Assembly (NCBI GenBank): GCA_023150875.1
Contig: JAKLKC010000053.1
Span: forward strand, 1 to 46,027
Source: Myxococcota bacterium
GTDB lineage: Bacteria > Myxococcota_A > UBA796 > UBA9615 > JAKLKC01
Reading direction: 5' to 3'
Length of the DNA stretch: 46,027 nt
The position numbers and the translations under genes are program-made. Position 1 is the stretch's first letter; every line of letters begins with the position of its first letter. The notes beneath the pieces were generated by a model. That model ran no database searches. It was not told the DNA's origin and was given only the letters and a program-made list of their open reading frames with translations. Below are positions 1,468 to 19,089 of the stretch, one piece after another.

Positions 1468-1569
1468 CGGCCCGACGTCCGGCGGCCTCCTGTCATAGTC
1501 GGGGTGCTGGATCTGGCCACCTCGTCCCGGGCGGCCCCGCGGCGGGCGGGTGGAGGCCGGGTCGGAGGC

Positions 1570-1854: not shown

Positions 1855-1858
1855 GGGG

Positions 1859-3064
1859 TCATCCGAGCCGCGATGGGCGGTACACTGGGTCCGCCCCCTG
1901 GAAGAGGCGGGCCAGCCGGCGCGCCTGGCGCTCCAAGACCCAGCCGAGCCGAGGACTCTCCCCCGAGTCCACCTCCCGCACCCCTCTCCGCAGCTCGCGC
2001 TGGAACTCGTGGAGGAAGAGGCGGCGGCCCCCGTCCTGGAGGTACACGGCCCGGGGCGGGGAGGGGGCGCCCGGGGCCGTCAGGTTCACCGGGACCGGCC
2101 GGGGATCCTGTTCCGCCGTATGGGGGTCACCCTGCCCGGCGGGCTCACCCCCAGCCGCCTCGACCTCCGAGTCCGCCGGGTCATCGGGCGGTTCGTCGAG
2201 ATCCGGGCCGTCCGGCTCCCGAGGGGCGGGCCCCGGGACCGCCAGGTGCGGACGCCTCCAGGAGGGATCCCCGAAGTCCTCGGGGGAGAGCTGCCGGCGG
2301 TTGACCAGCCGGAGGGTCATGCGGTCCACCACCCCCGCTCGGAACTCCTCCATGAGGTCCAGGGCCAGGGCCGGCTGGCCACGGATGGGCGCGTGGAGGG
2401 AGCCCACCCCCGGCAGGAGGCCCGTCGCGTACAGGGCCGACTCCACCCTCGTGGCGAGGAGCGTGTATCCGAAGGAGAGACAGGCGTTCACGGGGTCCCG
2501 GGGGGGGCGCCGATTGCGCCCGCTCCAACGGAAGTGGGGGTGGGTGATCAGACGGTCGAAGACCCCGTAGTAGATCGCCGCGGCCTGGCCCTCCAACCCC
2601 CGGGCCTGGTCGAGGCTCTCGGCGCCGGGAATGCGGCGCGACAGGGCGCGGAGCTGGCATGCCGCCTCTCCGATGGCCGGATCCTGGCGGTTGCGCTGGA
2701 CGTCGGTGAGCAGGCGCCACTGGGAGTCGACCTTGCCGGCCACGATCCACCGGGCCAGCGACAACGCGCGCTCCGGGTCCGCCAGCCAGCGCACCTGCTC
2801 CACCTGGAGGGCCCCCGTGGGCGAGCGGGGACCCTCCAGGCGGCCCCGGTATCGCCCGTCCGCGGTCAGGAAGACCACCGGGATCCCCCGGGCCAGGGCC
2901 GCCACCCGCGCCGATGCGCGGACCTCGGCCGCGCCGGAGATCTGGATCTCGTCCACCTCCCCGGCCCTGATCTCCCGCACCGGCTGGCCCCGGCGCTCGA
3001 CGACCCACTGCGAGCGGCGAAAGGACAGGGCCAGCGCCTCCCCCGCGAGGGCGAGCAGGGCCAC
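1859..3064 (-). CDS. cas1: CRISPR-associated integrase Cas1
   Basis: 401 residues; the Cas1 spacer integrase. The three metal-ligand positions are visible: E158 (GLEGQAAAIYY), H224 (GSLHAP) and D236/E239 (ALDLMEEFR). The N-terminal beta domain and C-terminal helical domain are both complete. It is longer than the usual 300-340 residues because of a Pro/Glu/Asp-rich insertion at about residues 267-337, between the DF motif and the final LFLHEFQREL helix. The reverse transcriptase and primase are separate upstream genes rather than fused to it. The primase gene ends 3 bp before this ATG and cas2 starts 4 bp after the stop. Confidence 0.95.
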   Translation of the reverse strand: MALLALAGEALALSFRRSQWVVERRGQPVREIRAGEVDEIQISGAAEVRASARVAALARGIPVVFLTADGRYRGRLEGPRSPTGALQVEQVRWLADPERALSLARWIVAGKVDSQWRLLTDVQRNRQDPAIGEAACQLRALSRRIPGAESLDQARGLEGQAAAIYYGVFDRLITHPHFRWSGRNRRPPRDPVNACLSFGYTLLATRVESALYATGLLPGVGSLHAPIRGQPALALDLMEEFRAGVVDRMTLRLVNRRQLSPEDFGDPSWRRPHLAVPGPAPREPDGPDLDEPPDDPADSEVEAAGGEPAGQGDPHTAEQDPRPVPVNLTAPGAPSPPRAVYLQDGGRRLFLHEFQRELRRGVREVDSGESPRLGWVLERQARRLARLFQGADPVYRPSRLG

Positions 3065-3067
3065 GCC

Positions 3068-4684: not shown

Positions 4685-4746
4685 GGCGTTGCGGGCTCCG
4701 GAGAGTGGAGGCCGATCAACGCCGGCCGCCGCCGCGCCTGACGGGC

Positions 4747-5745
4747 TCAGGGGGGCCGAGGGAGCCAGTCGGGCCACCACGCCGGGAGGGGCCAGGCCGC
4801 GCTCGATGCCCTCGCGGGGGAGCCTCCTCCCCCCGTGGGGATGGGGACCCGCTCCAGGCGGAACCCACCCGGTTCGGGGCGGATCCGAAGCGGGACGCCC
4901 AGGACCACCAGGGGCCCGCCGCGGTCCCCCGCGCGCCGGACCTCGGTCTTGTGCGGGGCGAGGCGCAGGCGCGCGTCCCCGAGGTGTCCGTCGAGCCAGC
5001 GGAGGAGCACGTCGGCGCAGCCCGGGTGGTCTCCCACCAGGAGGAAGTCGTCGGCGTAGCGGAGCCACCCCGCGGGCGGGCGGCCGTCGGGCCCCCTCTC
5101 CCGCTCCATCGGCCCGTCGACCCAGCCGTGGAGGTAGAGGTTGGCCAGCAGCGGCGAGAGGGGGGCCCCCTGGGGGATCCCTCGTCCGGGCGTCCGGGGA
5201 TCCGTCCACGCGCGCAGCCAGGCGGCGTTCAGGCGGAGCCACAGGGGATCGGGGCAGAGGGCGCCGGCCGCGGAGAGAAGCCGCCGGTGCTCCAGCCGGT
5301 CGAACAGGGCGTGGACGTCCCCCTTGACCACCTCCAGCCAGGGGCGGACGCCGATCCGGGCGAGGAGGGAGCGGACCCCGGACGTGGGGCCGCGGCCGGG
5401 GCGGAAGCCGTGGACGTGGGGCAGGAGCAGGGGCTCCGCGGCGGAGGAGAGCACGTGGTGGACCGCGGCCTGGACGAGGCGGTCGGCGACGCTGGGGATC
5501 CCGAGCGCCCGCGCGCCCCCCGAGGGCTTCTCGATGGTGACGTGGCGCAGGGGCCGGGGCTGCCAGCGACCGCCTCGCACCTGGTCCAGAAGCCAGGCTC
5601 GGCCGCCGGGGTGGGCGAAGACGGCGAACTCGTCGTCTCGCCGGAGCCCCGCTCCGCCCCGGGCCACCATGCGCTCCCAGGCGAGGCGGAAGACCTCTTC
5701 GGTGAGCAGCGAGGCCAGGTCCGGCAGGCGGCCCTCCAGGGCCAC
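4747..5745 (-). CDS. CRISPR-associated reverse transcriptase (group II intron-like)
   Basis: About 332 residues from a GTG at 5745. The N-terminus is uncertain because the frame stays open far upstream in this GC-rich DNA. Reverse transcriptase motifs occur in order: RT0/1 region (VFRLAWERMVARGG), RT2 (IEKPSGGARALGIPSVADRLVQ, split here only for reading), RT3/4 around KGDVHALFD, GIPQGAPLSPLLANL at 189-203, and the catalytic YADD at 230-233. There is no maturase or endonuclease domain after the thumb, so this is not a whole group II intron protein. With primase, cas1 and cas2 downstream, it probably allows spacers to be taken from RNA. The gap to the primase gene is 62 bp. Confidence 0.88.
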   Translation of the reverse strand: MALEGRLPDLASLLTEEVFRLAWERMVARGGAGLRRDDEFAVFAHPGGRAWLLDQVRGGRWQPRPLRHVTIEKPSGGARALGIPSVADRLVQAAVHHVLSSAAEPLLLPHVHGFRPGRGPTSGVRSLLARIGVRPWLEVVKGDVHALFDRLEHRRLLSAAGALCPDPLWLRLNAAWLRAWTDPRTPGRGIPQGAPLSPLLANLYLHGWVDGPMERERGPDGRPPAGWLRYADDFLLVGDHPGCADVLLRWLDGHLGDARLRLAPHKTEVRRAGDRGGPLVVLGVPLRIRPEPGGFRLERVPIPTGGGGSPARASSAAWPLPAWWPDWLPRPP

Positions 5746-6366
5746 GGACAGGGTCGCCGAGGCGGCGGCGGCCGAGGGAGGTCGGCGGGGCGGCGGGTTG
5801 GACGTCGGCAAGGGTGGGCCCGGGGGGCGGGGAGGGGACCGGGGCCGGCCCCTCGGGACCGGCGCCGCTGGACGCCCAGCGCCCTGAACGCCGGGGGGAC
5901 CCGGCGCTGACGAGGCCGGGCCCCGCCGGGGAGGCCGCCGCGCCCCCGCGCCGCAGGCTGGAGGGACCGGGGAAGGCTCCGGCCACCCCCTGGGAAGAAA
6001 TCGGAGCGATCGGCCTCTTCCCCCCTTCCACTGGCGGACGGTCTCGGGATACGGTGGGCGTGGCCGTGGGGACACGGCGTTTGTGACGACTCCGATGGAT
6101 CCGGGGAGATGAGGCGATGACGGCAGGGACAGGTCGCGTAGCGCCCGGGGCGGGCGCGTCTGGGACGAGTCCAAGGGCAGGTTTGGGGAGGGGAGGGGCC
6201 CCCGCGGCGGGGCGCCGCGCCGGTGGCCCGCCGCGCTCGCCCGCGACCCGCCGCCCGCCGAGGTAGGGGGATCCTCGTGGGGCCTCCCCGTGGGGGGGCC
6301 CCTCCGCTCCCGCGCCCGAGGCGGCGCACCCGGCGCCCTCGCGGGGCTCCGGGGAAGGGGACCGAC
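5746..6366. promoter_or_regulatory. divergent intergenic region between adaptation and effector operons
   Basis: About 620 bp with no gene I can support; it must hold promoters for the minus-strand adaptation genes and the plus-strand cmr operon. No convincing TTGACA/TATAAT pair is visible. The best plus-strand candidate is a weak TACGGT at about 6050 with a poor -35. The stretch 6190-6260 is dense in GCC/GGC and could fold stably. I see no direct repeats of CRISPR type. The region may also encode part of a longer N-terminus of the reverse transcriptase (5746-5890 codes a Pro/Arg-rich stretch in that frame). Confidence 0.5.
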
Positions 6367-7647
6367 GTGCCGAACGAGTCCATGACATTGAAGCTGGAGA
6401 CCACCGTGCCGGCCTTCGCCGGATCGGCAGCCACGCGGCAGGTCGACCCCTGGTTCGGGGTTCGCCCGAGCGCCATCCGGGGTGGGCTGCGGTGGTGGTT
6501 CCGGGCCGCGGCGGCGGGCGTGCTCCGTCCCGAGGGCGCGCCTCCCCGGGAGGCGGCCCTGAAGGAGGTCGTCGCCCGGATCCGGAGGGCCGAGACGGAG
6601 CTGTTCGGGGCGACGGAGAGGGCGTCCCGAGTGGTGGTCGGCCCGCCCCGGGGCGGCTCGATGCGGGAGGTCCCGCCCTTCGACCCCCGGAGCAAGGGGG
6701 GTGTGCGGTACCTGGGATTCGGGCTGTGGGACGACAAGGGAGCCAGAGCTCCCGAAGCGTGGTGGAGCCCCCGCCAGGACCCCCTGGTCGTCCCCATGCG
6801 GCTCCGCGACGGCGCGCCCGGGGGGGCGAGGGAGGCGCTTGCGGCGTCGATCTGGCTCTGGGCACACTACGGGGGCCTGGGCGCCAAGACGCGGCGGGGG
6901 TTCGGCAGCCTCCACCTGAGGGAGGACAGCGAACTCCCGTGGAGCGGACCGCCCCTGGGACGGGCGTCCGGCGTCTCGGAGCTCATGAAGCGCCTCCTCG
7001 CAGGGCTGGACGTGGCCAGCGAGGCGCTGCGGCGCTACCTGAGGAACGCGACGGACTGGGACGGCCGGGCCGGCAAGGCGCCCCACCCGCGGATCCGCTC
7101 CATCGACGGCATCGACTCCCTGCGGGCCCTCCCCCTGGTGTACCAGGACTGGACGTCGGCCTTGGACCACGCCGGGCGCCTCTACCGGGCGTTCCGGAGC
7201 ACCGTGGAGCGCCAGCACCTGGGGATGGCGCCCCTGCCGGACTTCTTCGCGGTGAAGGGCTCCCTCACCGGCGGGGGGGCGCCCCGCACCGTGGACCGCG
7301 CCGCGTTCGGGCTCCCCCTGCCGTTCTACTTCCGCTCCCTGGGCGGGGCCAAGACCAGGTTCGAGCCCGACGAGCAGGACGGCGACCGGCTGGCGTCCCC
7401 CCTCCTCTTCCGGGTCCACCCCGTCCGGAGGCAGGGGCCCGGCGGCGGCTGGGAGGATCGCCTGGCGGTGGTGCTGGTCAACCTGGCCCAGCGCGACCCC
7501 GGGGACGCGCTGCTGGGGTGCAGGCTCCGGCAGGACCGGCCCCCCAACCGGGGGATCGCCGCCCCGGGCGGCACCATCATCGAGCAGTTCATCGCCTGGG
7601 CCAGGGACCACGCGACCCAGGTGGGCGCGCCGGGGGGGGAACGATGA
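6367..7647 (+). CDS. cmr1: type III-B CRISPR RAMP protein Cmr1
   Basis: 426 residues from GTG 6367, preceded by GGGGAAGGGG; ATG 6382 is an alternative start. The N-terminal strand TLKLETTVPAFAG followed by the basic motif SAIRGGLRWWFRA is the Cmr1 signature. The glycine-rich GLGAKTRRGFGSL at about residues 175-190 is the RAMP G-loop. Cmr1 caps the head of the Cmr complex, near the 3' end of the crRNA, with Cmr6. It is the first gene of a tightly packed operon; its stop overlaps the cmr2 start by 4 bp (ATGA). Confidence 0.93.
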   Translation: MPNESMTLKLETTVPAFAGSAATRQVDPWFGVRPSAIRGGLRWWFRAAAAGVLRPEGAPPREAALKEVVARIRRAETELFGATERASRVVVGPPRGGSMREVPPFDPRSKGGVRYLGFGLWDDKGARAPEAWWSPRQDPLVVPMRLRDGAPGGAREALAASIWLWAHYGGLGAKTRRGFGSLHLREDSELPWSGPPLGRASGVSELMKRLLAGLDVASEALRRYLRNATDWDGRAGKAPHPRIRSIDGIDSLRALPLVYQDWTSALDHAGRLYRAFRSTVERQHLGMAPLPDFFAVKGSLTGGGAPRTVDRAAFGLPLPFYFRSLGGAKTRFEPDEQDGDRLASPLLFRVHPVRRQGPGGGWEDRLAVVLVNLAQRDPGDALLGCRLRQDRPPNRGIAAPGGTIIEQFIAWARDHATQVGAPGGER

Positions 7648-10469
7648 GCGGGACCCTGGACAGGGCCTACGCGCTCCGGGCGTGGGCGTTGCTGCTGCCC
7701 TGGGACCGGGAGCCCGGGGACGAGGGGGCGTTCGCCGCGGTCCCCCGGGAAGTGGTGAAGCGTCTCGGCCTCCCGGAAGAGCTGGACCCCTCCGAGAGGG
7801 CCCTCGTGTGCGCCTGCGCCATCGACGCCTACGCGGCGCAGATCGGCGCGGCGGCGGGGCCGGCGGCTGAGCCCGGCGGCGGGTCGCGGAGCCTGCCGGC
7901 GCTGAGGCACCCCCTCTCGGCCACGAGCCTGAGGGGAGGCACGCGGAGCGGCCCCGCGGACGGCGCCGCCGCGTACATGGACTTCATGGGATCGCTGGGG
8001 GTGGCGGCCCGGGGCGACGGGCAGGCGGACTCCGAGTGGTATCGGGACCTGTGGTTCCAGCTCGCGGAGGCCATGTCCTCGGGCCCGGCGGCAATGGTCC
8101 CGGGGAGCCGGCGGATCCCGGACTTCCCGGTGTGGGCCCACAGGACCCTGACGGCGGCCCTGGTGGGGGCGCGGTACTCCGGCGCGGTCCGGGCCGACGG
8201 CGGAGGCGGCGGGGCGGCCCTGCTCTACCTGCACCTCGGCCCCGTCCAGGACTTCATCGCCGCGGCGCGGCGCACCCACGACCTGTGGGTGGGCAGCTTC
8301 ACGGTGAGCTACCTGGCGTTCCGGATGGTGAGGGAGATCGTGGAGAGGGCGGGCCCCGACGCCGTGGTCTACCCGGACCCCACCGTCTTCCCCCTGGCGC
8401 GGTTGGAACACCGCGGGCCGGAGGACGTGGAGCCCCAGGACCGGATCCGGCCGTGCATCCCCAACAAGCTCCTGGCGGTGGTCCCGGCGGGCCGGGCGCC
8501 GGAGCTGGCCCAGGGCGCGGCAGCCCGGGCGCTGGAGACCTGGATGGGGATGGCGGAGGCTTGCCGGGCGGGGGTCTACGAGGCGCTGGCGAGGGGGAAC
8601 GGTGCTCGGGACCTGGCCGGCGCCGACGACTGGCGCGGGTTCGCCGAGCAGGTCGACGCCCACCTCGAGATCGACGCCGTCGTGCAGCCCTGGCCCGACC
8701 GGCGCGAGGACGTGGCGGCGCTGCTGGCCGGGCTCGGCGTGGAAGGCCGCGAGGGGTTGGAGGGGCTGCCCAGCGGCGTCACCGGGGACGCCTACGGAGC
8801 CCTCTTCGACACCACCCACCGCCTCCTCGTGGCGCACCGGCGGGCCGCTCCCCGCGTCCAACCCCCGGGGGACGACCGGCCCAAGTGCGACCTCTGCGGC
8901 GAGAGGGAGAGGATGGGGCCCGCGCGGAAGAGCAGGGAGTTCTGGCGCGAGCTGGGGGCGGCCCTCCAGCGGGCGGAGTCCGGCAACCAGGGTGGAGGAC
9001 CGCTCCCCGACCGCCTCTCCCTCCAGGTGGCGGACGGCGAGGGGCTCTGCGCCGTGTGCTTCACCAAGCGCCACGCCCCCCGGTACTGGTACGGTAGCAG
9101 GAAAGGGGGGCTGGGCCTGGAATGGGAGCGGCGGGACCGGGACCGCCCGTGGCTGCGGTTCCCCTCCACCGCGAGCATCGCGTCGGCCCCCCTCCGGTGG
9201 CGCCTCGCGGAGGTCCGAGACACCGTGCCCTTCCGGAAGTGGTGCTCGGCGCTCGACCGCCTCCACGCGCGGGACCTCTTGAGCTTCGACCCCCCGGGCA
9301 ACCTCGTCCCAGGCGTGGGCGAGGTCGGCCCCGGGGCGGTCTTCCCCTTCGACGGGACGTGGTGCTACGAGAGCGCCTACGACCCGGCGACCGCCTGGCG
9401 GGACCACCGGGAGGCGTCGCCGTCCGAGGCCGACGCGAAGAAGCTGGGCCCTCCGCTCCTGGCGGCGGACCGGCTCCGGCGCCAGGTCCTCGCCGACCTC
9501 GGCCCGGGCACCGGGGCGAGCCCCTACTACGCGGTCCTGGCCATGGACGTGGACCGCCTGGGGGAGTGGCTGACAGGGAGGCATCGCCGCACCCCCACCT
9601 GCGCCGAGGCGGCCACGGACCTGACCGGACCGCCGTGGGACTCGACCCCGCGCCCCCTCTTCCCCGCCCTCCACCGGGAGATCTCCCGACGGATCGCCCG
9701 CCTCGCCACGAGGGCGATCCCCGAGGCGATCGAGGGGATCGGCCTCGGGCGGGTGGTGTACTGCGGGGGCGACGACGTCCTGGCCCTCCTCCCCCTGCGG
9801 AGCGCCCTGCCGGTCGCCCAGGAGGTGCGGGACCGGGTGCGCGCCGAGGAGGGGCTCGGGGACAGGGTCGGGATCAGCGCCGGGATCGCCGTCGCCCACT
9901 TCACCCGCCCCCTCTCCCGGGCGATCCAGGAGGCCCGGGACGCCCTCCACGAGGCGAAGGAGACGAGGCGCCGGATCGGGGAGAAGGGGGAGCGGGACCG
10001 CTGGCGGGTGCGCGCGGCGGTGCGCTCGGGAGCGCCGCTGGTGGTGGACGCGCCCTTCGAGATCCCCCGCCCCCGGGGCGGGGAGCTCCGGGTGATCGAC
10101 GGGCTCCTGGACCTCCAGAGGGACATCGCCGGCGTGGCCGACGCCGCGGGCGACGCCGAGTCCATCGGCAACGTGGCCGCGGCGTACGCCCTGGAGCGGG
10201 AGGTGGGGGTCCTGGACGCACCTGGGTTGGAGGATGCCCTGATCCATCGCCTGCGGGTCCTCCTGGGTACCGACAGGACCACGGCGTCGAGGGACGATCC
10301 CTCGGTGTTGCTGGAGATCCTCCTGGCCCGCTTCCGCGCCGAGCTTCCACCGCCGCCAGGCCCGGGGAGGAGGCTGGTGGACCTGCTCCTCCTCCTGCGC
10401 TTCCTGGAGAGGGAGCGCCACGGGCTCCCGCCGTGGGGATCCGACGGAATGCCGGAGGGGAGGCGATGA
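7644..10469 (+). CDS. cmr2: type III-B Cas10/Cmr2, cyclase-competent, HD motif absent
   Basis: 941 residues, the large subunit of the Cmr complex. The first palm domain carries GPVQDFIAAARR (199-210) and DLWVGSF. Zinc-binding cysteines are C415/C418 and C469/C472. The second palm has the cyclase motif GGDD at 708-711 (YCGGDDVLALLPL), so cyclic oligoadenylate synthesis is expected upon target RNA binding. The N-terminal region keeps the RHPLS segment, but where other Cmr2 proteins have an HD nuclease motif (LLHDPP) this one reads LLLPWDREPGD. Single-stranded DNase activity is therefore probably lost. The start overlaps the cmr1 stop and the stop overlaps the cmr3 start. Confidence 0.95.
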   Translation: MSGTLDRAYALRAWALLLPWDREPGDEGAFAAVPREVVKRLGLPEELDPSERALVCACAIDAYAAQIGAAAGPAAEPGGGSRSLPALRHPLSATSLRGGTRSGPADGAAAYMDFMGSLGVAARGDGQADSEWYRDLWFQLAEAMSSGPAAMVPGSRRIPDFPVWAHRTLTAALVGARYSGAVRADGGGGGAALLYLHLGPVQDFIAAARRTHDLWVGSFTVSYLAFRMVREIVERAGPDAVVYPDPTVFPLARLEHRGPEDVEPQDRIRPCIPNKLLAVVPAGRAPELAQGAAARALETWMGMAEACRAGVYEALARGNGARDLAGADDWRGFAEQVDAHLEIDAVVQPWPDRREDVAALLAGLGVEGREGLEGLPSGVTGDAYGALFDTTHRLLVAHRRAAPRVQPPGDDRPKCDLCGERERMGPARKSREFWRELGAALQRAESGNQGGGPLPDRLSLQVADGEGLCAVCFTKRHAPRYWYGSRKGGLGLEWERRDRDRPWLRFPSTASIASAPLRWRLAEVRDTVPFRKWCSALDRLHARDLLSFDPPGNLVPGVGEVGPGAVFPFDGTWCYESAYDPATAWRDHREASPSEADAKKLGPPLLAADRLRRQVLADLGPGTGASPYYAVLAMDVDRLGEWLTGRHRRTPTCAEAATDLTGPPWDSTPRPLFPALHREISRRIARLATRAIPEAIEGIGLGRVVYCGGDDVLALLPLRSALPVAQEVRDRVRAEEGLGDRVGISAGIAVAHFTRPLSRAIQEARDALHEAKETRRRIGEKGERDRWRVRAAVRSGAPLVVDAPFEIPRPRGGELRVIDGLLDLQRDIAGVADAAGDAESIGNVAAAYALEREVGVLDAPGLEDALIHRLRVLLGTDRTTASRDDPSVLLEILLARFRAELPPPPGPGRRLVDLLLLLRFLERERHGLPPWGSDGMPEGRR

Positions 10470-11746
10470 GCGCCGTGTCGACCGTGTTCTTCGAGCCGCT
10501 GGACGTGCTGTTCTTCCGCGACCACCGCCCCTTCGACGCGGGCTTGCACTCCTTCGGGCGGTCCACCTTCCCCCAGCCCAGCGTGATCCGGGGGGCGCTG
10601 CGGACCGCTCTCTTCCTGGCTTCCGGTGCGCGCTTCGACAGCAACGAGCCGGGGTTCGGGGCCCCGGAGCCTTGGGTCACCCCGGTCCTGGGCGGCCGGA
10701 AGTGCCCGGGAAGCCTCTCCGTCCGGGGCCCCTTCCTGGCTCGGGGAGGGGCGGGGGGCGCCGGGCTCCAGCCCCTCCTGGCGATGCCGGCGGACCTCGA
10801 CGTCCGGGAGCTGGACCCGCCGCCCGGTCGGGCCGGTGGCGGGTCCCCGGCCGCGGCGCGGGAGCGGGAGCTGGTCCGTTCCAATCCGTTGGACATGGGG
10901 GCCCTACCGGCCCCGAGGCCGGTCCGCCTGCACCGCTGGAGGACGGGCGACGAGGCGCCGCTGGCGGAGTGGGGCGGGTCCCTGCCCTGGTCCCCGGTGG
11001 CCGCCGGAAAGGGGGGAGGCGCGGCCTACCTCGCCGGGGAGGGGATCGGCTGGTACCTGGGGGGCGAGGACGAGCGGCGGACCGTTACCCCGGGGGAGGG
11101 CTGGGTGGTCCGGGAGGGGGAGGCGCTCGAGTACGAGGAGCGGATCGGGATCCAGCGGGACGCGGCCACGCTGGTCGTCCAGGAGGGGATGCTCTACGCC
11201 ACCCGGTGCCTGAGCTTCCGGCGCGGCTTCGGCCTGGCCGCGGAGGTGGACTGGGAGGCCACCGCGAGCGCCGGAGGCGTGGGGTTGGAAGGGGTCGAAG
11301 CGGCGCGGCGGCGCCTCCACGAGCTGAGCGGGAGCACGATCTCCCTGGGAGGGAAGGGCCACCGGGCGAGGGTCCACGTCCGGGAGGGGGGGGTGGTCCC
11401 CCGGGGCCTCGGAGCGGGTGAGGCCGGCTCTCGGCTCCGGGCCTGGCTCCTTACCCCCACGCCCTTCAAGACCGGGGAGGGGGGCGTGCCCGAGGTCCTC
11501 GTCCCGGGGAGGGGGGCGGGGCTGGTGTCCATCGCCGCGGGCCGGCCGGTGGCGACGGGCGGGTTCGACATGGCCGGGGGTCGTCCCCGCCCCCTACGGC
11601 CCGCCCTGCCCGCGGGTTCGGTGCTCCACTTCGATTGGACGGAGGGTGGAAACATGGAGGGGTGGTGGACGGAGGCCCTCGCGAGCGAGGACCGGCGCAC
11701 GGGGTTTGGAGTCGCGCTGATGGGCGCTTGGAAGGAGTCGAGATGA
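10466..11746 (+). CDS. cmr3: type III-B CRISPR RAMP protein Cmr3
   Basis: 426 residues. The N-terminus FFEPLDVLFFRDHRPFDAG and the following QPSVIRGALRTALF are characteristic of Cmr3, which binds the 5' tag of the crRNA and contacts Cas10. The C-terminal half has the RAMP strand pattern and a glycine-rich segment near GFDMAGGRPRPLRPALPAGS. It overlaps cmr2 by 4 bp at its start and cmr4 by 4 bp at its end, with AGGCGATGA and AGATGA junctions. The assignment is confident from both motif and gene order. Confidence 0.92.
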   Translation: MSAVSTVFFEPLDVLFFRDHRPFDAGLHSFGRSTFPQPSVIRGALRTALFLASGARFDSNEPGFGAPEPWVTPVLGGRKCPGSLSVRGPFLARGGAGGAGLQPLLAMPADLDVRELDPPPGRAGGGSPAAARERELVRSNPLDMGALPAPRPVRLHRWRTGDEAPLAEWGGSLPWSPVAAGKGGGAAYLAGEGIGWYLGGEDERRTVTPGEGWVVREGEALEYEERIGIQRDAATLVVQEGMLYATRCLSFRRGFGLAAEVDWEATASAGGVGLEGVEAARRRLHELSGSTISLGGKGHRARVHVREGGVVPRGLGAGEAGSRLRAWLLTPTPFKTGEGGVPEVLVPGRGAGLVSIAAGRPVATGGFDMAGGRPRPLRPALPAGSVLHFDWTEGGNMEGWWTEALASEDRRTGFGVALMGAWKESR

Positions 11747-12780
11747 GCGAGGAGTCGAACGCCGGAGGCGGCCGGATCCGGGAGCCCGGGATGCTGGTCT
11801 TCTACTACACCGAGACACCCCTCCACGCCGGGAGCGGCACGGGGATCGGTGCCATCGACCTGCCCATCCAGCGGGAGCGGATGAGCGGCCTCCCCATCGT
11901 CCAGGGCTCGGGGATCAAGGGGGCGTGGCGGGAGGCCATGAGGCAGCGGGTGGGGCGGGGTGCGGCGCGGGACTCGAAGGCCGGCGACGGGAAGGGGGCC
12001 GACCTGGTGCTGTCCTGGTTCGGGCCCGAGCCCCCGCGGGTGGGGGACGGGGAGGGCAAGACGGGGGAGGCCGCGCCCACCTTCGCCGGTTGCGTCTCCC
12101 TCGGGGACGCCCGGCTGCTGCTGCTGGCGGTGAGGACCCTCAAGGGGGGGTGGGCGTGGGTCACCTGCCCGCTGATCCTGGAGAGGCTGGTTCGGGACCT
12201 GGAGATCCTGGGTATGGAGCTCCCCGGTTGGGTCTCCCCGGGGGCGGATCTCGCGGGGGCGTGGGTCTCGAAGGGGGCGAAGAGCGCGGTGGTGTCCGAG
12301 GGGCGGCTGGTCATCGAGGACTTCGACTACGCGGCGGAGGAGCGGGAGGAGGTGGACCGGCTCGGGGAGTTCCTGCGGGAACGTGCCTTCCCGGACACGC
12401 CGAGCTACGCCCCCTTCCGGGACCGGATCCCCGGGCAGCTCGCGGTGCTGCCGGACGAGGAGCTGCTGTTCCTGGCGCACCACGCGACCGAGGTGGTGGC
12501 GAGGATCAGGATGGACGGCGGCACCGGGACGGTGGCGAAGGGGGCGCTCTGGTCCGAGGAGAGCATCCCCGCCGAGTCCTTCCTTTGGTCCCTGGGCACC
12601 TTCACCGGCGACCGGCGGCCCGGCGAGGAGGCGGGGGCGGGAGCGATGCGGAGGGACTTCGTGGCCGCCGCCCGGGAGTGCGCTCGGATCCGCCTGGGCG
12701 GGGACCGCACCGTGGGCCGGGGCGTGGTCGGCGTCCGCGTGTACGCGCCCGGCGCGGAGACAGAAGGGAGCCAGCCGTGA
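11743..12780 (+). CDS. cmr4: type III-B backbone RNase Cmr4
   Basis: 345 residues. Cmr4 is the repeated backbone subunit that cuts target RNA every six nucleotides. The family motif HAGSGTGIGAIDLPIQRER is intact; D39 aligns with the catalytic Asp26 of Pyrococcus Cmr4, so RNA cleavage should be retained. SGSGIKG-like RAMP basic residues follow (QGSGIKGAWREAM). The C-terminal GGDRTVGRGVVGVRV is the glycine-rich loop. It overlaps its neighbours by 4 bp on both sides, and the cmr5 GTG is embedded in its stop (GTGA). Confidence 0.95.
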   Translation: MSEESNAGGGRIREPGMLVFYYTETPLHAGSGTGIGAIDLPIQRERMSGLPIVQGSGIKGAWREAMRQRVGRGAARDSKAGDGKGADLVLSWFGPEPPRVGDGEGKTGEAAPTFAGCVSLGDARLLLLAVRTLKGGWAWVTCPLILERLVRDLEILGMELPGWVSPGADLAGAWVSKGAKSAVVSEGRLVIEDFDYAAEEREEVDRLGEFLRERAFPDTPSYAPFRDRIPGQLAVLPDEELLFLAHHATEVVARIRMDGGTGTVAKGALWSEESIPAESFLWSLGTFTGDRRPGEEAGAGAMRRDFVAAARECARIRLGGDRTVGRGVVGVRVYAPGAETEGSQP

Positions 12781-13229
12781 CCGAGGAGAAGAGGCGTGAC
12801 GGGACCGCGACGACCGGCCTGGCCCAGGGCGGCACCGTGGCGGGCCAGATCGAGCAGCGGAGGGCGGCCTGGGCCTGGGCGAGGGTCGAGGAGGTCGCCG
12901 CCTGGGACAAGGCGAGCAAGGACAGGGAGGAGTACGCCGGCCTGGCCCTGAAGCTCCCCGCCCTGCTCCAGACCAGCGGGCTGGGTCAGACCATGGCGCT
13001 GCTGTTCGCCAAGGGGGGCGGTGGGAAGGAGGGCTCGGGAAACCGGGCCTACCGCACGATGTATCTCCAACTTCAAGCCTGGCTCCGGGCACGGATGCGG
13101 TGGCGCGAGGACCAGGAGGCGATGGAGCGCATCGTCGCCTGCTCCCCGGAGGCATACCGGCAGGCGACGCGGGAGGTCGCCGCCGTCTCCGAGTGGATCA
13201 AGCGGTTCGCCAAGGGGCGGATCGAGTGA
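12777..13229 (+). CDS. cmr5: type III-B small subunit Cmr5
   Basis: 150 residues from GTG 12777, which overlaps the cmr4 stop and has GAAGGGAG just upstream. It is mostly helical. The family pattern is visible: a central LPALLQTSGLGQTMALLFAKG, then AYRTMYLQLQAWL, and a C-terminal helix ending EWIKRFAKGRIE. Cmr5 lines the inner filament facing the target RNA. The N-terminal 20 residues are a variable extension. A 49-bp gap to the cmr6 ATG is the only sizeable spacing in the operon. Confidence 0.9.
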   Translation: MTEEKRRDGTATTGLAQGGTVAGQIEQRRAAWAWARVEEVAAWDKASKDREEYAGLALKLPALLQTSGLGQTMALLFAKGGGGKEGSGNRAYRTMYLQLQAWLRARMRWREDQEAMERIVACSPEAYRQATREVAAVSEWIKRFAKGRIE

Positions 13230-13278: not shown

Positions 13279-14223
13279 ATGGGCAACGGCCGAGACACGT
13301 TTCGACCCGGAGGTACGGGGGGGGGAGGAGGCCGGCCGGGGGGCGCGGATCGGTGGCCTCCCCGCGACCGCGACGGAGGGAGCCGCGACGGAGGGGACGG
13401 CGAGATGTGCCTGCCGCTGCCCGGAGACACGGCGCGGCGGGTGCCGGCCCGGCCGAGCCAGGGAGACAACATCGGGCTCTGGCTCGACAAGTTCGTGCGA
13501 CGGCGGAGCCCCTCGCCCGAGGCCCTCCGCAAGGGCGACGCCTGGGCCATCAAGTCCGAATACCGGGACCGGGCGCTGGCCCCCTTCTGGAGGGAGATCA
13601 CCGGGGCGGCGCGGGCCTGGAGGTCCGAGGCGGGGGTCCAGGGGCTCGCCCGGTCGGGCGAGGCGGTGAGGGCCCTCCACGGCGACGGAGGCTGGCGCAC
13701 CCACGACGCGAAGGTCCACGGGCGCCTGCTGGTGGACTACGGCCGGGCGACGTCCACAGAGATGAGCCTGTCCTTCCACCCCACCTGGGGGGTGCCGAGG
13801 ATCCCCGCCAGCGGCGTGAAGGGGGCCCTCCGCGCCTACCTGGAGGAGACGGGGGAGGCCGACCCGGTCCTGGACGCGCTGTTCGGCGGGACCGAGAGGG
13901 CGGGCGCCCTGGTCTTCCACGACGCCCTGCCCCTCGGGGGGACCTTCAAGCTGGCCTTGGACGTGCTCACCCCCCACCACGGCAAGTACTACCAGGAGGG
14001 AGCCCCCCCCGGGGACTGGATGAGCCCGGTGCCCCACACCTTCCTCACCGTCGTCGATACCACCTTCCGGTTCGCCATCGGCTTGGACGAGCGCCGATTG
14101 GAAGGGATGGCTCCCAAGGTCGCCTTGGACCTGGCCGTCCAGGGCCTCAGGGAAGCGCTCGACTCCCGCGGGGTCGGCGCCAAGAGGGCCGCGGGCTACG
14201 GTCGCCTGGGGAGGATCCCGTGA
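13279..14223 (+). CDS. cmr6: type III-B CRISPR RAMP protein Cmr6
   Basis: 314 residues from ATG 13279, preceded by AAGGGAAG. After a Gly/Arg-rich N-terminal stretch (about 40 residues) the Cmr6 core appears: DNIGLWLDKFV, then the RAMP motif WGVPRIPASGVKGALRAYL, VFHDALP, the LTPHHGKYYQ segment and the terminal glycine-rich VGAKRAAGYGRLG. Cmr6 sits at the head of the complex with Cmr1. The stop codon overlaps the GTG of the downstream ATPase gene by 4 bp, which ties that gene to the Cmr operon. Confidence 0.93.
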   Translation: MGNGRDTFRPGGTGGGGGRPGGADRWPPRDRDGGSRDGGDGEMCLPLPGDTARRVPARPSQGDNIGLWLDKFVRRRSPSPEALRKGDAWAIKSEYRDRALAPFWREITGAARAWRSEAGVQGLARSGEAVRALHGDGGWRTHDAKVHGRLLVDYGRATSTEMSLSFHPTWGVPRIPASGVKGALRAYLEETGEADPVLDALFGGTERAGALVFHDALPLGGTFKLALDVLTPHHGKYYQEGAPPGDWMSPVPHTFLTVVDTTFRFAIGLDERRLEGMAPKVALDLAVQGLREALDSRGVGAKRAAGYGRLGRIP

Positions 14224-16844
14224 CGGGGAAGTACCTCGACGAGAGCCCCTACACGCCCGAAAAGGGGCCAGCCCGGGACCTCGCCCGGAGCATCGCCGAG
14301 TGGGTCGCGGACGCCGGGAGGCGCTCGTCCGACGGGGCGTGGGTCGCGGGGGTCCACGGGGACAGGGGCACGGGCAAGACGTCGCTGCTGAAGGGAGTCT
14401 TGGAAGAGCTGGAGGAGAGGGGGAGGCGAGGCGAGGGAGGGAAGCCGGGGGAGGGTGACGGGCGCGGATTGGACTCTCCGGTAGACTGGGGTCCGCCCCG
14501 GGTCGTGCTCCCCCATCCCCGGCCAAAGTCGGGGTTCGGGGCGGAGAAGGTGCAGTCCCCGCGACGCCGGGATGGCCGGGAGGCCGGGGAGCCGCCGCAG
14601 CCCGGGGCTGCGACGGGGCGCACGACGGACAGGTTCCTGGCGCCCTCCATGACCCGATCCGGCGACGGGCTCCTCTTCGTTCTGCTGGACCACCTCCATC
14701 GATTCTACGCCCGGCCTGGCGCCTCCCCGGCTTCGGGCCGGTCCGCGTCCTGGGGCGGATCCCGGCCCGAGGACTTCCTCGCGGACGGCGGGGGCGCGGA
14801 TCCCTATGCGAGGGCACGCCGCGCGGAGGCGAGGAGACACGACCTCCCCCTCTTCCTCCAGTACGCCCGGGAGGTCGCTCCTTCCCGAGACAAGCTCCCC
14901 GAATACTTCGCCGAGCAATACCAGGAGGCGGCCACGGCGACCGCCAACATCCAGAGGCGATTCGCGGAGATCCTGGACGAGATCCGCAGGCCGGGCAAGG
15001 ACGCGGTGGTCCTGTTCGTCGACGACCTGGACCTCCAACCCCAGCGGAGCCTGGAGATGTTGGAGCTCATCCACCTGTTCCTCCACCGGCCGGGCGTCGT
15101 GGTGCTCCTCGCCGCCGACCGGGACCTCCTGCTCCACAGCCTGGAGGAGGGGCTGAGGGAGAGGTGGCCGTTGGCCGCCCACTCCCAGCGAGGGTTCGCG
15201 GGGACGCCGGGCCTCGCCGCGGAGCTGATGGCCAAGTTGATCCCCCTCTGGTGGACGGTGCCGACCCCCACCCCGGCGGAGCGGGTCGCCTTCGCCTGGA
15301 GCGGCAGGGGCGGCGAAGAGGGGGGGGCTCTCCGAGTGGCATGGAAGAAGGAGCCCCTGGAGGGGCTCCTGAGCATGGCGAACGTCGCGCGCCATTCCCG
15401 GGAACTGCGGCAGGAGAGGTGGCGAGAGGGAAGCCGCCCGGAGGGGCCCGCACCGGGCGGGAAGGAAGACCCCGTCCAGAGGGAGATCCTGGAGCGCCTC
15501 CTCCCGGACACGTGGCGGGGCCTGGTGGCGTACCGGAACCGCCTCCAGTCCGTCGTGGACAGGGCAATGGCGAGCCACGGGCGTACGAGCGGAGCGGGCG
15601 AGGGGGACGCCTTCGCGGCCGTCGCCGCGGACTTGAGCCGTCGCTGGGCCGCCTTGGGGTTGGACGCGGACGGGTTGCCGTCGTGGGCGGCCCTCCTCCT
15701 CGCCGTGGACGTGCGCTGGCCCGAGCTCCAGGTCTGGAGCGTCGCCGACCGGGACCCCAGGGCGCTTCGGGAGTTCCTCATCGGGCTCGGCGAGATCGTC
15801 GACAAGGGGGAGGTCCTGGGCGCTGGCGCGGGGCCGCAGGGCCCGGGGACGATCCCCCTGCTGGACCGGGTCGGCCCCCCGTTCCTGGACGGGATGCGCC
15901 TCCACTACGCCCGGGTCGCCCTCGCCTGGCTCGGGAAGCAGTGGAGCCAGGTGTGGAGTCCCGGCTCCATCGGCGCCTTCGCGAGGCTCCGGTGGCTGGT
16001 GGTCAGCCTGAACCAGGACGCCCTCGGCCTCACGCGGGCCCGGAGGTCCGGCGTGGGCGGGCCGGCCGAGGAAGCGGAGATGGAGGCCTGGCACGTGGAC
16101 CTCCAGGCCCACGCCCTCCTGCCCGGCCCCCGGGCGGACGCGGTGGGGCTCCGCGCCGCCCGCGCCGACGCGCGGCGTCTCATCGAGGAGAGGGGGGTCC
16201 GCTCCTTCGACGGCGCCCTCCAGGTCTTCGCCAAGGCCCAGATCCCCCTGGCCGCGTGGCTCGGCTGGTACCTGAGACACGTGGGGCTTGCCGCGGTGTA
16301 CAACGAGTGGCAGGGGGTCTGGACCCCCTTCCTCATCCCCCCCGAGGTGGGCCTGGTGCGGGCCCCGGGGACAGGCGTGTTCCACCGGCTCCGCATCCAC
16401 GAGCCCGAGGATGTGCCGGAGGGTCCCGGCGACCAGGCGGTGGTCATCGTGGACCTGAGCGGGAAGGCCACCCCCGCGCAGCTCCGGGAGTTCTGGACCC
16501 GCGGCCCTGGGGGGGAGGAACAGGTGCGCGCCGGGCACCGCTACCTGCTCCAGGTGCCTGAGGGGACAGGGTCACGGGTGGAGGCCGACGACGCCGTCCC
16601 CATCCTCGAGGACGTGATGGAGCTGCTCCGCGTGCTCCGCGACTCCGAGGGGGTGCGCGCCTTCCACTTGGGCTTCGCAGGGCCCACCGCCCTGGCGTTC
16701 CTGCTGGGCCGGCACCTGAACGCCCAGGGGGTGGTCCACCTGTACGAGCTCCTGAAGAAGGGCGAGCAGACGCGCTACGAGTACGTCTTCGACCTGGACG
16801 GGGAGGACGGGGGGGGAGAGGGCGGTGCCGAGGGCGAACGCTGA
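14220..16844 (+). CDS. RdrA-like P-loop ATPase with C-terminal SAVED domain
   Basis: 874 residues from GTG 14220, with GGGGAGGA 6 nt upstream. Walker A is GDRGTGKTS (47-55, K53); Walker B is VVLFVDDLDL with D268/D269, followed by HRPGVVVLLAADRDLLL, as in KAP-family ATPases and RdrA of RADAR. Residues about 65-140 form a Pro/Arg/Gly-rich insertion. A helical middle region runs to about 650. The last ~200 residues look like SAVED: AAWLGWYLRH (678-687), VVIVDLSGK (741-749), FHLGFAGPTALAFLLGRHLN (815-834) and HLYELL (840-845). SAVED domains bind cyclic oligonucleotides in CBASS and in type III CRISPR (CalpL). I infer an ATPase gated by the product of Cas10. The deaminase gene overlaps its end by 20 bp. 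Confidence 0.85.
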   Translation: MTGKYLDESPYTPEKGPARDLARSIAEWVADAGRRSSDGAWVAGVHGDRGTGKTSLLKGVLEELEERGRRGEGGKPGEGDGRGLDSPVDWGPPRVVLPHPRPKSGFGAEKVQSPRRRDGREAGEPPQPGAATGRTTDRFLAPSMTRSGDGLLFVLLDHLHRFYARPGASPASGRSASWGGSRPEDFLADGGGADPYARARRAEARRHDLPLFLQYAREVAPSRDKLPEYFAEQYQEAATATANIQRRFAEILDEIRRPGKDAVVLFVDDLDLQPQRSLEMLELIHLFLHRPGVVVLLAADRDLLLHSLEEGLRERWPLAAHSQRGFAGTPGLAAELMAKLIPLWWTVPTPTPAERVAFAWSGRGGEEGGALRVAWKKEPLEGLLSMANVARHSRELRQERWREGSRPEGPAPGGKEDPVQREILERLLPDTWRGLVAYRNRLQSVVDRAMASHGRTSGAGEGDAFAAVAADLSRRWAALGLDADGLPSWAALLLAVDVRWPELQVWSVADRDPRALREFLIGLGEIVDKGEVLGAGAGPQGPGTIPLLDRVGPPFLDGMRLHYARVALAWLGKQWSQVWSPGSIGAFARLRWLVVSLNQDALGLTRARRSGVGGPAEEAEMEAWHVDLQAHALLPGPRADAVGLRAARADARRLIEERGVRSFDGALQVFAKAQIPLAAWLGWYLRHVGLAAVYNEWQGVWTPFLIPPEVGLVRAPGTGVFHRLRIHEPEDVPEGPGDQAVVIVDLSGKATPAQLREFWTRGPGGEEQVRAGHRYLLQVPEGTGSRVEADDAVPILEDVMELLRVLRDSEGVRAFHLGFAGPTALAFLLGRHLNAQGVVHLYELLKKGEQTRYEYVFDLDGEDGGGEGGAEGER

Positions 16845-19089
16845 CGCCGCCGTCACCCGGTGGATCGCGCGCCCCCTGTTCGAGGCGGGCTTCCTGCGCC
16901 TCCACGTCGCCGAGCTGTCCGTGGTGCTCGGCACGGGCAAGGAGTGGAGGCGATTCCGGCCCGATCCCCACGCGCGGCTGTTCGAGGCGGCGTTCTTCGC
17001 CTGCCCACCGGGGCCGAGGTACCTCGCCCGGCACCGCGACGAGGCTTGGGCGACCCTCCGGGACCCGGTCCTCTCCGTGGGGCGGCCCTGGGAGCGGTTC
17101 CGCGAGGTCCTGGCCCTCCTCCGGAGCCGATCCCCCCGGGCGGAGCCGGGGAGACCGGGGATGCTGGAGATCTGGCGCGGGCTGGGGAACGAGACCCAGG
17201 CGTCCGAGCCGCTGCTGGCGGACGGGGGAGCGGCTGACGGTGGGGAGAACCGGTTGCCCGGCGGCGACCTGCGTGCACGGTACGAGGTCCACGCCCACCT
17301 CTACGGCGCCGTCCCCTTCGAGCACCTGTGGACGGGCTGGCTGGGGAACGAGCGGTGGGCCCGGCAGTTGGAGGGCGTGCCGTTTCGGTCCTGCGGCTGG
17401 GAGATGAACGGTGCCGAGGCCGTCGCCCTGGCCAGGAGAGTGGCGGCGGAGCTCGGGGCTCCCATGGCGGACGGCGAGGTGGAGTCCCGGTGGTGCGCCT
17501 CCCTCGTCCAGGGTCTGGCGGGCGGCGGTGTCGGCGCCCCCGGGCTCCGCGGGCGGCGGGGCGTCCTGGCGGTGGGATACCTGGCCCTCCGGGGCGCGGT
17601 CCGAGAGGCCCTCGTGGTGGGGCCGGGCGAGGTTGGCCTCGACTCGTTCAGGACCTCGTATGATCGATACGCCGACGCCCAGTTCATGGCCCGCGACGCC
17701 CCGGGCAACCAGGACCGCCGGCTCGTTCGCGCCGCCCTGGACCGTTACGCGGGGGAGGGGGTCCAAGGGGTCGAGCTCCGGCCGGCGCTCAACGGGCGCG
17801 GCCCCGCCGAGACCGTCGTCCGGCTGCGGGACTGCGTCCTGGGGTACTTCGATCACCTGGAGGCGGCGTGGAAGGGGAGTGGCGCGGGGAGGGCGCTGCG
17901 CTTCGGGCTGGTGCCGTCGCTGATCCGCCAGGCCCACCTGGAGCCCGGACTCCGGACCTCCTCGCTGGACGCCTGGGAGGGCCAGGCGGCGGCTTGGGCG
18001 CGGCAGGTGGAGCACCTGCTGGTGGCCGTGGGGGAGGTGCCCTGGCTGCGGTACTTCCTGGTGGGGTTGGACGTGGCCGCCGGGGAGAGGGGCTGCCCGC
18101 CCCGGGCGGTCGCGCCCGCCCTGGGGCGGGTCCAGGCGTACAACCGCGCCCTGGGGCTGGAGTGGGCGCGCCCGGGGCGGGAGATCCAGGTGGACCTGTT
18201 GAGGCGGGCGTTCGAGAGTGCGGGCCGCGGGAGGGGGGCGGACCTGCTGCTGGAGGAGCTGGGGAGGGCGAGGGAGATCCCCCCGGCGCGGATCGGGCTC
18301 ACCGTCCACGCGGGCGAGGACTTCCTGGACCCCGTGACCGGACTCCGGCACGTGTGGGAGGCCGCCGAGGTCCTGGACCTCCAACCGGGGGATCGGATCG
18401 GGCACGGGATCGCCCTCGGGCTGCACCCGGCCGCCCTCCGCCAGGTCCTGGACGCCCGGTGTCACGGCCCCGGGCGGGACGTCGAGTCCCTGGGGGGTGA
18501 CCGGTGGCGCCTGCTCAAGCCCCGGGGGACCCACCTGCTGGACCTGGCGTGGGAGTTCCGGATCGGGGAGCCCGCGGAACGGGGTGCGCTCGCGGAGACG
18601 ATCGGGCGGGTGGCGGTGGGCTCCTTCGGCTACCCCGCGCGGGTGGATCGGCTGCTCCGTGACCTGGTCGCCGCCGGCTCCGTGCCCCACCCGGTGCTGC
18701 CGGGGATCCGCTACCGGGCCGAGGGGGACGTGGGCCCCGAGGACCGGGAGTGGGTGGTGGTGGACCGGGACTGGCTCCGGAGGTTCGAGGTCGTCCGGGA
18801 GCGCACCATCGCCCGAGTGGAGCGCCGGGGGCTGACCGTCGAGTCCTGCCCCACCTCGAACTGCGTCGTCTCGGGGCTCGAGGTGCCACCCATCGGCGAG
18901 CTCTCGTCGCACCCGGATCTCCGGGTCGCCCTGGCGACCGACGATCCCGGCCTGCTGGACGCCTGGCCGGGGGGGGAGGCGAGCCGTGCCCTGGTGGCCA
19001 TCCGGGGGCGGATGGGCCCGGGAGCTGCGTGGGCGGGGCTGGAGCGGGTCGTGGGGGAAGCGGAGCGGTCGAGCTTCATCGCCCCCTGA
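16825..19089 (+). CDS. RdrB-like adenosine deaminase
   Basis: 754 residues from GTG 16825, overlapping the ATPase gene by 20 bp. All adenosine deaminase active-site positions are present: zinc ligands H156/H158 (VHAHLYG), H495 and catalytic E498 (VHAGED), H527 (RIGHGIALG) and D706/D707 (ATDDPG); SCPTSNCVVSG (674-684) is the usual strand before them. The spacing is far larger than in housekeeping adenosine deaminase, and there are about 150 extra N-terminal residues. Size, divergence and pairing with a KAP-like ATPase match RdrB of RADAR, which deaminates adenosine in RNA or nucleotides. No CARF or SAVED domain is seen here; sensing would have to come from the ATPase. Confidence 0.88.
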   Translation: MPRANADAAVTRWIARPLFEAGFLRLHVAELSVVLGTGKEWRRFRPDPHARLFEAAFFACPPGPRYLARHRDEAWATLRDPVLSVGRPWERFREVLALLRSRSPRAEPGRPGMLEIWRGLGNETQASEPLLADGGAADGGENRLPGGDLRARYEVHAHLYGAVPFEHLWTGWLGNERWARQLEGVPFRSCGWEMNGAEAVALARRVAAELGAPMADGEVESRWCASLVQGLAGGGVGAPGLRGRRGVLAVGYLALRGAVREALVVGPGEVGLDSFRTSYDRYADAQFMARDAPGNQDRRLVRAALDRYAGEGVQGVELRPALNGRGPAETVVRLRDCVLGYFDHLEAAWKGSGAGRALRFGLVPSLIRQAHLEPGLRTSSLDAWEGQAAAWARQVEHLLVAVGEVPWLRYFLVGLDVAAGERGCPPRAVAPALGRVQAYNRALGLEWARPGREIQVDLLRRAFESAGRGRGADLLLEELGRAREIPPARIGLTVHAGEDFLDPVTGLRHVWEAAEVLDLQPGDRIGHGIALGLHPAALRQVLDARCHGPGRDVESLGGDRWRLLKPRGTHLLDLAWEFRIGEPAERGALAETIGRVAVGSFGYPARVDRLLRDLVAAGSVPHPVLPGIRYRAEGDVGPEDREWVVVDRDWLRRFEVVRERTIARVERRGLTVESCPTSNCVVSGLEVPPIGELSSHPDLRVALATDDPGLLDAWPGGEASRALVAIRGRMGPGAAWAGLERVVGEAERSSFIAP

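What the first reader, a model, noticed from the sequence alone, without database searches (positions are those of the whole stretch)
16220..16820. SAVED sensor domain at the C-terminus of the ATPase
Seen: the last ~200 residues contain AAWLGWYLRH, a VVIVDLSGK strand, FHLGFAGPTALAFLLGRHLN and HLYELL in the order typical of SAVED. Established: SAVED domains bind cyclic oligonucleotides in Cap4 and in the CRISPR protease CalpL. Inference: this domain makes the ATPase a receptor for the Cas10 product. To my knowledge classical RdrA carries no SAVED domain, so the fusion would be new wiring of RADAR.
Basis: partly seen in the sequence, partly recalled or inferred. Interest (0 to 1): 0.88.

Follow-up and report, generated by a model that had tools for sequence, protein, structure and literature searches.

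The report
CRISPR-wired RADAR with a SAVED sensor
A bacterial CRISPR operon carries its own version of the RADAR antiviral system, in which the controlling ATPase has gained a SAVED domain, a known type of receptor for CRISPR alarm molecules, suggesting that CRISPR switches RADAR on; what switches ordinary RADAR on is still unknown.

Summary
The 874-residue ATPase (14220-16844) ends in a real SAVED domain: Pfam E=3.6e-15 over residues 664-858, and a predicted fold whose 50 best Foldseek PDB hits are all SAVED proteins (Cap4 Z=19.6, CalpL Z=18.5). Its front half is a divergent RdrA ATPase; the next gene is an RdrB-type deaminase with all zinc and catalytic residues. Both follow a complete type III-B cmr1-6 set in one overlapping operon. 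The same order recurs in a second Myxococcota genome, at about 30% identity, beside a CRISPR array. Of 60 RdrB-linked ATPases outside CRISPR loci (48 tested with Pfam, 12 with a local profile) none has SAVED; both CRISPR-linked ones do. The CRISPR-linked RdrBs form one clade (SH-aLRT 99). Cas10 keeps its cyclase motif but shows no N-terminal HD motif, so signalling is probably its main output. Best reading: Cas10's cyclic oligoadenylate binds SAVED, which drives the ATPase to activate ATP deamination by RdrB. Ligand binding, ligand identity and RdrB activation are inferred, not shown. The trigger of classical RADAR is unknown and its C-terminal lobe is only hypothesised to be the sensor, so this natural sensor swap is highly testable. 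No prior description was found in the library searched.

The parts
14220..16844 (+). SAVED-RdrA: RdrA-like AAA+/KAP ATPase with C-terminal SAVED domain (874 aa, GTG start overlapping the cmr6 stop as GTGA)
14220..15269 (+). RdrA-type ATPase domain (residues 1-350): Walker A 47-GDRGTGKT-54, Walker B 265-LFVDDLDL-272, sensor-1 D300, K339; sensor-2 R433 lies just outside
   Evidence: RdrA profile match at residues 37-342; VIA-align to RdrA 8hr8 Z 17.1, residues 14-349; conserved columns
16056..16805 (+). SAVED sensor domain (residues about 613-862)
   Evidence: Pfam, AlphaFold2, Foldseek and VIA-align
16825..19089 (+). RdrB-type adenosine deaminase (754 aa as called; overlaps the ATPase gene by 20 bases, exact start uncertain); zinc/catalytic residues H156, H158, H495, E498, H527
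   Evidence: PADLOC RdrB E=1.9e-13, PDB 8fnv, RdrB profile 152 bits, motifs
7644..10469 (+). Cas10/Cmr2: GGDD cyclase motif at residues 708-711; no HD motif in the N-terminal region
6382..7647 (+). Cmr1 (RAMP)
10466..11746 (+). Cmr3
11743..12780 (+). Cmr4 (RAMP)
   Evidence: tblastn to the G038 locus
12777..13229 (+). Cmr5
13279..14223 (+). Cmr6 (RAMP; start uncertain)
   Evidence: tblastn to the G038 locus

Best explanation
This is a RADAR pair used as a type III-B CRISPR effector. SHOWN by sequence or structure prediction: a divergent RdrA ATPase carries a C-terminal SAVED domain, is followed by an RdrB deaminase, and both sit in the cmr1-6 operon with a Cas10 whose cyclase motif is intact. 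INFERRED: crRNA-guided detection of foreign RNA makes Cas10 produce a cyclic oligoadenylate; this binds the SAVED domains, probably between neighbouring subunits as in other SAVED effectors; binding drives or rearranges the RdrA ring, which docks on RdrB and lets it convert (d)ATP to (d)ITP, stopping phage replication. SAVED would take the place of part of the variable C-terminal lobe that Duncan-Lowey et al. suggested as the sensor of ordinary RdrA.
For: SAVED: Pfam 3.6e-15; fold matches only SAVED among the 50 best Foldseek hits, Z 19.6 to Cap4. RdrA: a profile of 48 classical RdrAs gives 77 bits, above all 21 KAP control proteins from the class (at most 46) and inside the range of Myxococcota RdrAs next to RdrB (69-215); best VIA match of residues 14-349 is RdrA 8hr8, Z 17.1; Walker A/B, K339 and sensor-2 Arg invariant across the set. 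RdrB: 152 bits on a profile of stand-alone RdrBs; the zinc and catalytic residues named for E. coli RdrB are present. Linkage: same gene order Cmr1-6, SAVED-RdrA, RdrB in G038/MAG.235 at 30-34% identity, with CRISPR array and Cas1, Cas2, Cas6. SAVED in 2 of 2 CRISPR-linked RdrAs and 0 of 60 others. The CRISPR-linked RdrBs are one clade, SH-aLRT 99. Cas10 has GGDD and no N-terminal HD motif in window and G038. One Cas10 and no SMODS-type CD-NTase were found in the genome.
Against: No ligand binding, ring assembly or deamination can be shown by computation. The partner locus in G038 also carries a CD-NTase and a SAVED-CHAT gene, so the messenger there could come from a CBASS enzyme. The G038 ATPase scores only 29 bits on the RdrA profile, inside the KAP control range. 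The middle region (about 350-610) has no profile match to RdrA and low model confidence, so interfaces with RdrB are not established. The full-length model was built with RdrA rows in its alignment, which steers its RdrA match. Only two intact loci were found.
Confidence: 0.68

Rival explanations
1. SAVED senses a CBASS messenger made by a CD-NTase rather than Cas10's product; the operon is a joint CRISPR/CBASS locus.
For: G038 carries a SMODS-type CD-NTase and a SAVED-CHAT protein directly after RdrB, and the degenerate G010 III-B locus carries a DncV-like CD-NTase. SAVED domains of CBASS bind CD-NTase products.
Against: No CD-NTase was recognised among the genes after RdrB in the window; no SMODS-family match in the whole 98%-complete genome, with working positive controls. 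The DncV-like scan was also empty but had no ringing control. The Cas10 cyclase motif is intact.
Confidence: 0.12
2. SAVED is mainly an off-switch: a ring nuclease that destroys cyclic oligoadenylate, with the ATPase regulated otherwise.
For: CalpL's SAVED domain is a ring nuclease (PMC11417357, title), and a viral SAVED ring nuclease, 9r8s, is among the closest folds.
Against: In CalpL the same domain is also the activating receptor, so ring-nuclease activity would not exclude sensing. No other sensor domain was recognised in the window ATPase.
Confidence: 0.08
3. The ATPase is another KAP/STAND ATPase with its own SAVED-gated activity, and the RdrB next door works without it.
For: Pfam names it KAP; PADLOC scores QatA above RdrA; a SAVED-KAP fusion exists elsewhere without recognised RdrB or Cmr neighbours (L127).
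Against: A profile from 48 RdrAs outscores the best KAP control by about 30 bits for the window protein. The pair is adjacent, in RADAR order and overlapping in the window, and kept side by side in a distant relative. RdrA is the best VIA match of the ATPase domain.
Confidence: 0.1
4. The resemblance to SAVED is chance or a misread frame.
For: High-GC window with many spurious overlapping ORFs.
Against: E=3.6e-15, an independent relative with the same domain at 34% identity, and a SAVED fold by structure search.
Confidence: 0.01

Closest known systems
RADAR (RdrA-RdrB; E. coli and S. suis structures, PMC9994260)
   Same: RdrA-type AAA+ ATPase plus RdrB-type deaminase, adjacent and in the same order, with catalytic residues conserved
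   Different: RdrA C-terminal part is SAVED here, where classical RdrA has an all-helical lobe without known homologues; embedded in a type III-B operon; classical RADAR loci examined here have no Cmr linkage and no SAVED
Cad1 (CARF-adenosine deaminase of type III CRISPR, PMC11645235, PMC12669630)
   Same: Type III CRISPR effector that ends in ATP deamination, gated by a CARF-superfamily sensor
   Different: Cad1 is a single CARF-deaminase protein; here the sensor sits on a separate ATPase and the deaminase is of the RdrB family with no CARF domain detected (RdrB 47 bits, CARF-ADA 24 bits)
CalpL, SAVED-CHAT and TIR-SAVED effectors
   Same: SAVED domain fused to an effector module; all three are found with type III CRISPR systems
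   Different: Those carry the enzyme that does the damage; here SAVED is on a regulatory ATPase that would control a second protein
Cap4 and Cap5 of CBASS
   Same: Closest SAVED folds (Z 15-19.6)
   Different: CBASS nucleases driven by CD-NTase products; no SMODS-type CD-NTase found in this genome

Membership tests
SAVED domain (PF18145) | Profile score above the curated cut-off | tested here: met
   56.6 bits vs 26.2, E=3.6e-15
SAVED domain (PF18145) | SAVED (tandem CARF-like) fold | tested here: met
   Foldseek best 50 all SAVED; VIA Z 15-19.6 vs at most 6.3 for others
SAVED domain (PF18145) | Binds a cyclic oligonucleotide | not testable with these tools
   needs binding assay
RdrA | AAA+ ATPase with RdrA-position Walker A/B and sensor residues | tested here: met
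   K53, D268, D269 in 50/50; K339 and R433 in all 49 readable; D300 shared by 33/50
RdrA | Closer to RdrA than to other KAP ATPases | tested here: met
   77 bits vs at most 46 for 21 KAP controls; Myxococcota RdrAs next to RdrB score 69-215; but cross-validated classical RdrAs score 91 or more and the G038 homologue scores only 29
RdrA | All-helical C-terminal lobe | tested here: inconclusive
   residues about 350-610 predicted helical at low confidence; no profile match beyond residue 342
RdrA | Adjacent RdrB | tested here: met
   next gene, overlapping by 20 bases as called
RdrA | Heptameric ring docking on RdrB | not testable with these tools
   needs biochemistry or cryo-EM
RdrB | Histidine tetrad and catalytic Glu of RdrB | tested here: met
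   H156, H158, H495, H527, E498 correspond by motif to E. coli H152, H154, H498, H530, E501
RdrB | RdrB rather than Cad1 or housekeeping deaminase | tested here: met
   152 bits on stand-alone RdrB profile; PADLOC RdrB 47 vs CARF-ADA 24 bits
Cad1 (CARF-ADA) | CARF domain fused to the deaminase | tested here: not met
   only A_deaminase found in the deaminase
Type III-B CRISPR-Cas | Cmr1-6 with Cas10 | tested here: met
Type III-B CRISPR-Cas | Cas10 cyclase motif for signalling | tested here: met
   GGDD at residues 708-711
Type III-B CRISPR-Cas | CRISPR array to supply guides (not needed beside the operon) | tested here: inconclusive
   no array in the window; array of 11 repeats at the homologous G038 locus; arrays elsewhere in the own genome not searched
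CBASS | CD-NTase gene with the SAVED effector | tested here: not met
   no SMODS match in the whole genome; present in G038

The most novel reading that the evidence does not exclude
RADAR's RdrA is a ring with an exchangeable C-terminal sensor; in Myxococcota a SAVED domain has taken that place, putting RADAR under the control of a type III CRISPR second messenger. This would be the first RADAR with an identifiable trigger and a second route, besides Cad1, from type III CRISPR to ATP deamination.
Probability: 0.6. Interest if true: 0.92.

Novelty: new variant of a known kind. Interest (0 to 1): 0.85.

Why it matters
What activates RADAR is an open question: Duncan-Lowey et al. 2023 state that the trigger is unclear and hypothesise that the RdrA C-terminal domain is the sensor (PMC9994260), and Baca et al. 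2024 still call its activation mechanism unknown (PMC11645235). Here evolution appears to have put a well-understood receptor domain at that end of the protein and placed the pair under a defined upstream enzyme, Cas10. That gives a system in which the trigger can be synthesised and added in a tube, so that how RdrA switches on RdrB becomes directly testable. It would also show that stand-alone immune systems can be recruited as CRISPR effectors by swapping the sensor.

Tried and rejected
Scanning viral and genome contigs with the ATPase alone found no relatives, probably because its sequence is too divergent for the peptide patterns; the deaminase alignment worked instead. A plasmid search was empty. 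A first phylum-wide search failed on the server. Composite alignment A7 appeared to misplace SAVED fragments and was replaced by A9. The full-length AlphaFold2 model has only pLDDT 56.5: its RdrA match is used for the ATPase domain only and is partly steered by RdrA rows in the alignment. Chance match, a different C-terminal fold, and SAVED as a general feature of RdrA were rejected. Cad1 was considered and rejected for the deaminase. Makarova 2020 and Burroughs 2015 are not in the library, so an earlier listing of this architecture cannot be excluded; no model named as a SAVED-ATPase fusion appears among the 25 PADLOC hits shown for this protein. The ligand (cA3, cA4 or other) could not be predicted; by profile the nearest solved SAVED sequences are Cap5-like, by single sequence CalpL at a non-significant E of 0.4.

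Full report
OBSERVATION. The ATPase gene runs from a GTG at 14220, overlapping the cmr6 stop as GTGA, to 16844 (874 aa). Pfam finds SAVED (PF18145) at residues 664-858 with E=3.6e-15 and KAP_NTPase with E=9.5e-11. An AlphaFold2 model of residues 600-874, from 15 SAVED sequences, has pTM 0.76. All 50 of its best Foldseek hits in the PDB are SAVED proteins: Cap4, Cap5, CalpL, SAVED-CHAT, TIR-SAVED and a viral SAVED protein. VIA-align gives Z 19.6 for Cap4 and 18.5 for CalpL, falling to at most 6.3 for the next, non-SAVED rows.

WHAT THE ATPASE IS. Family libraries alone do not call it RdrA (PADLOC RdrA E=0.0037; QatA and PifA score higher). A profile built from 48 ATPases that neighbour RdrB outside CRISPR loci matches it at 77 bits over residues 37-342 and nowhere else. 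Twenty-one KAP ATPases of the same class score at most 46 bits; classical RdrAs score at least 91 in cross-validation, but RdrAs next to RdrB in Myxococcota go down to 69. Walker A Lys53, Walker B Asp268/Asp269, Lys339 and the sensor-2 Arg433 are shared by every readable member. The full-length model (low overall confidence) has RdrA 8hr8 as its best VIA match for residues 14-349, Z 17.1, against about 13 for origin-recognition ATPases; RdrA rows were in the alignment, so this is partly steered. Verdict: a divergent RdrA ATPase. The G038 homologue is more divergent still (29 bits). Residues about 350-610 look helical, but are unassigned.

NEIGHBOURS. The next gene (16825-19089) is an RdrB: PADLOC E=1.9e-13, PDB hits only to RdrB, 152 bits on a profile of stand-alone RdrBs. 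Its H156, H158, H495, H527 and E498 fit the zinc tetrad and catalytic Glu of E. coli RdrB. Upstream lie Cmr1, Cas10, Cmr3, Cmr4, Cmr5 and Cmr6. Cas10 keeps the GGDD cyclase motif; its first 160 residues hold no HD dinucleotide and Pfam finds no HD domain, and the G038 Cas10 has no HD dinucleotide anywhere. Loss of the HD nuclease would make second-messenger signalling the main output, though the absence rests on motif and Pfam only. The genome has one Cas10 match and no SMODS-type CD-NTase.

COMPARISON. The same order Cmr1-6, SAVED-RdrA, RdrB occurs in G038 (its contig corresponds to JAKLKD010000191.1, Myxococcota bacterium MAG.235), with ATPases 30% and deaminases 34% identical, SAVED E=1.9e-8, Cas6, Cas1 and Cas2 and an array of 11 repeats. 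A search of 84,980 genomes with the deaminase returned 80 RdrB loci, of which only this one has Cmr homologues by tblastn. Pfam on 50 RdrB-neighbouring ATPases finds SAVED in two, the window and G038. Fourteen further Myxococcota RdrB loci were fetched; twelve had an RdrA-profile match, none a SAVED match with the local profile or a Cmr hit. So 2 of 2 CRISPR-linked and 0 of 60 other RdrAs have SAVED. A tree of 81 RdrBs puts the window, G038 and a fragment from a third III-B locus (G010) in one clade (SH-aLRT 99), apart from the other 78; branches are long and the fragment short, so this is supporting, not decisive. Rarity: in 282 sampled phylum genomes only the window's and G038 have a SAVED-RdrA of this type; the third match of that search, in G023, is another ATPase.

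MECHANISM. Shown: domain identity, gene order, conserved active sites. Established for relatives: SAVED domains bind cyclic oligonucleotides and mediate assembly (PMC11229360, PMC9704534); RdrA docks as a ring on RdrB, which turns (d)ATP into (d)ITP, and both RdrA and RdrB active sites are needed in vivo (PMC9994260). Inferred: Cas10's cyclic oligoadenylate binds SAVED, which assembles or rearranges the RdrA ring and activates RdrB. The main rival is a CBASS-type messenger, because G038 and G010 also carry CD-NTases; the window genome argues against it for this locus.

RELATION TO KNOWN SYSTEMS. It works like a type III effector such as Cad1 (ATP deamination) or TIR-SAVED (SAVED-gated), but is built from RADAR parts. 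It is a new variant joining two known kinds, not a new kind. No paper in the searched library was found to describe it; two key surveys are not held, so earlier mention cannot be ruled out. A 2024 survey of type III effectors covers CalpL, SAVED-CHAT and TIR-SAVED and has no occurrence of RADAR, deaminase or ATPase in its main text.

Noticed in passing
L009 (G010:C95) 8676-11240 -: One protein joins a Cmr-type RAMP, a SAVED domain and a nucleoside phosphorylase (PNP) domain, in a III-B operon: a SAVED effector physically fused to the CRISPR complex.
   Followed up: partly
L126 (G030:C921) 822-3392 - and L128 (G100:C14) 6627-8672 -: Two more such fusions in Myxococcota: RAMP-SAVED-TIR, and SAVED-Cmr3. 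SAVED tethered to Cmr subunits looks like a recurring theme.
   Followed up: partly
L009 7206-7697 -: RdrB remnant of about 162 residues with a stop just upstream, in a III-B locus that also has a DncV-like CD-NTase and a TIR protein: probably a decayed relative of the window's system.
   Followed up: partly
L123 (own genome, contig C29) 2370-4800 +: A TIR-SAVED gene followed by a Cas6 gene on a 5.4 kb contig, possibly a second SAVED effector serving the same single Cas10.
   Followed up: partly
L127 (G008:C57) 6260-10012 +: SAVED and KAP ATPase fused in the opposite order in a 1250-aa protein, with no RdrB or Cmr gene recognised nearby.
   Followed up: no
L004 2328-4767 -: SMODS-type CD-NTase and SAVED-CHAT genes directly behind the CRISPR-RADAR operon of G038: CRISPR, RADAR and CBASS parts in one row.
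   Followed up: partly
window 3068-6865 -: ORF with a TOTE-type primase-polymerase domain (E=8.9e-38) directly next to cas1 (1859-3064) and cas2 (1570-1854), probably a CRISPR-associated Prim-Pol; its called start overlaps cmr1 on the other strand, so the true start is probably lower.
   Followed up: no
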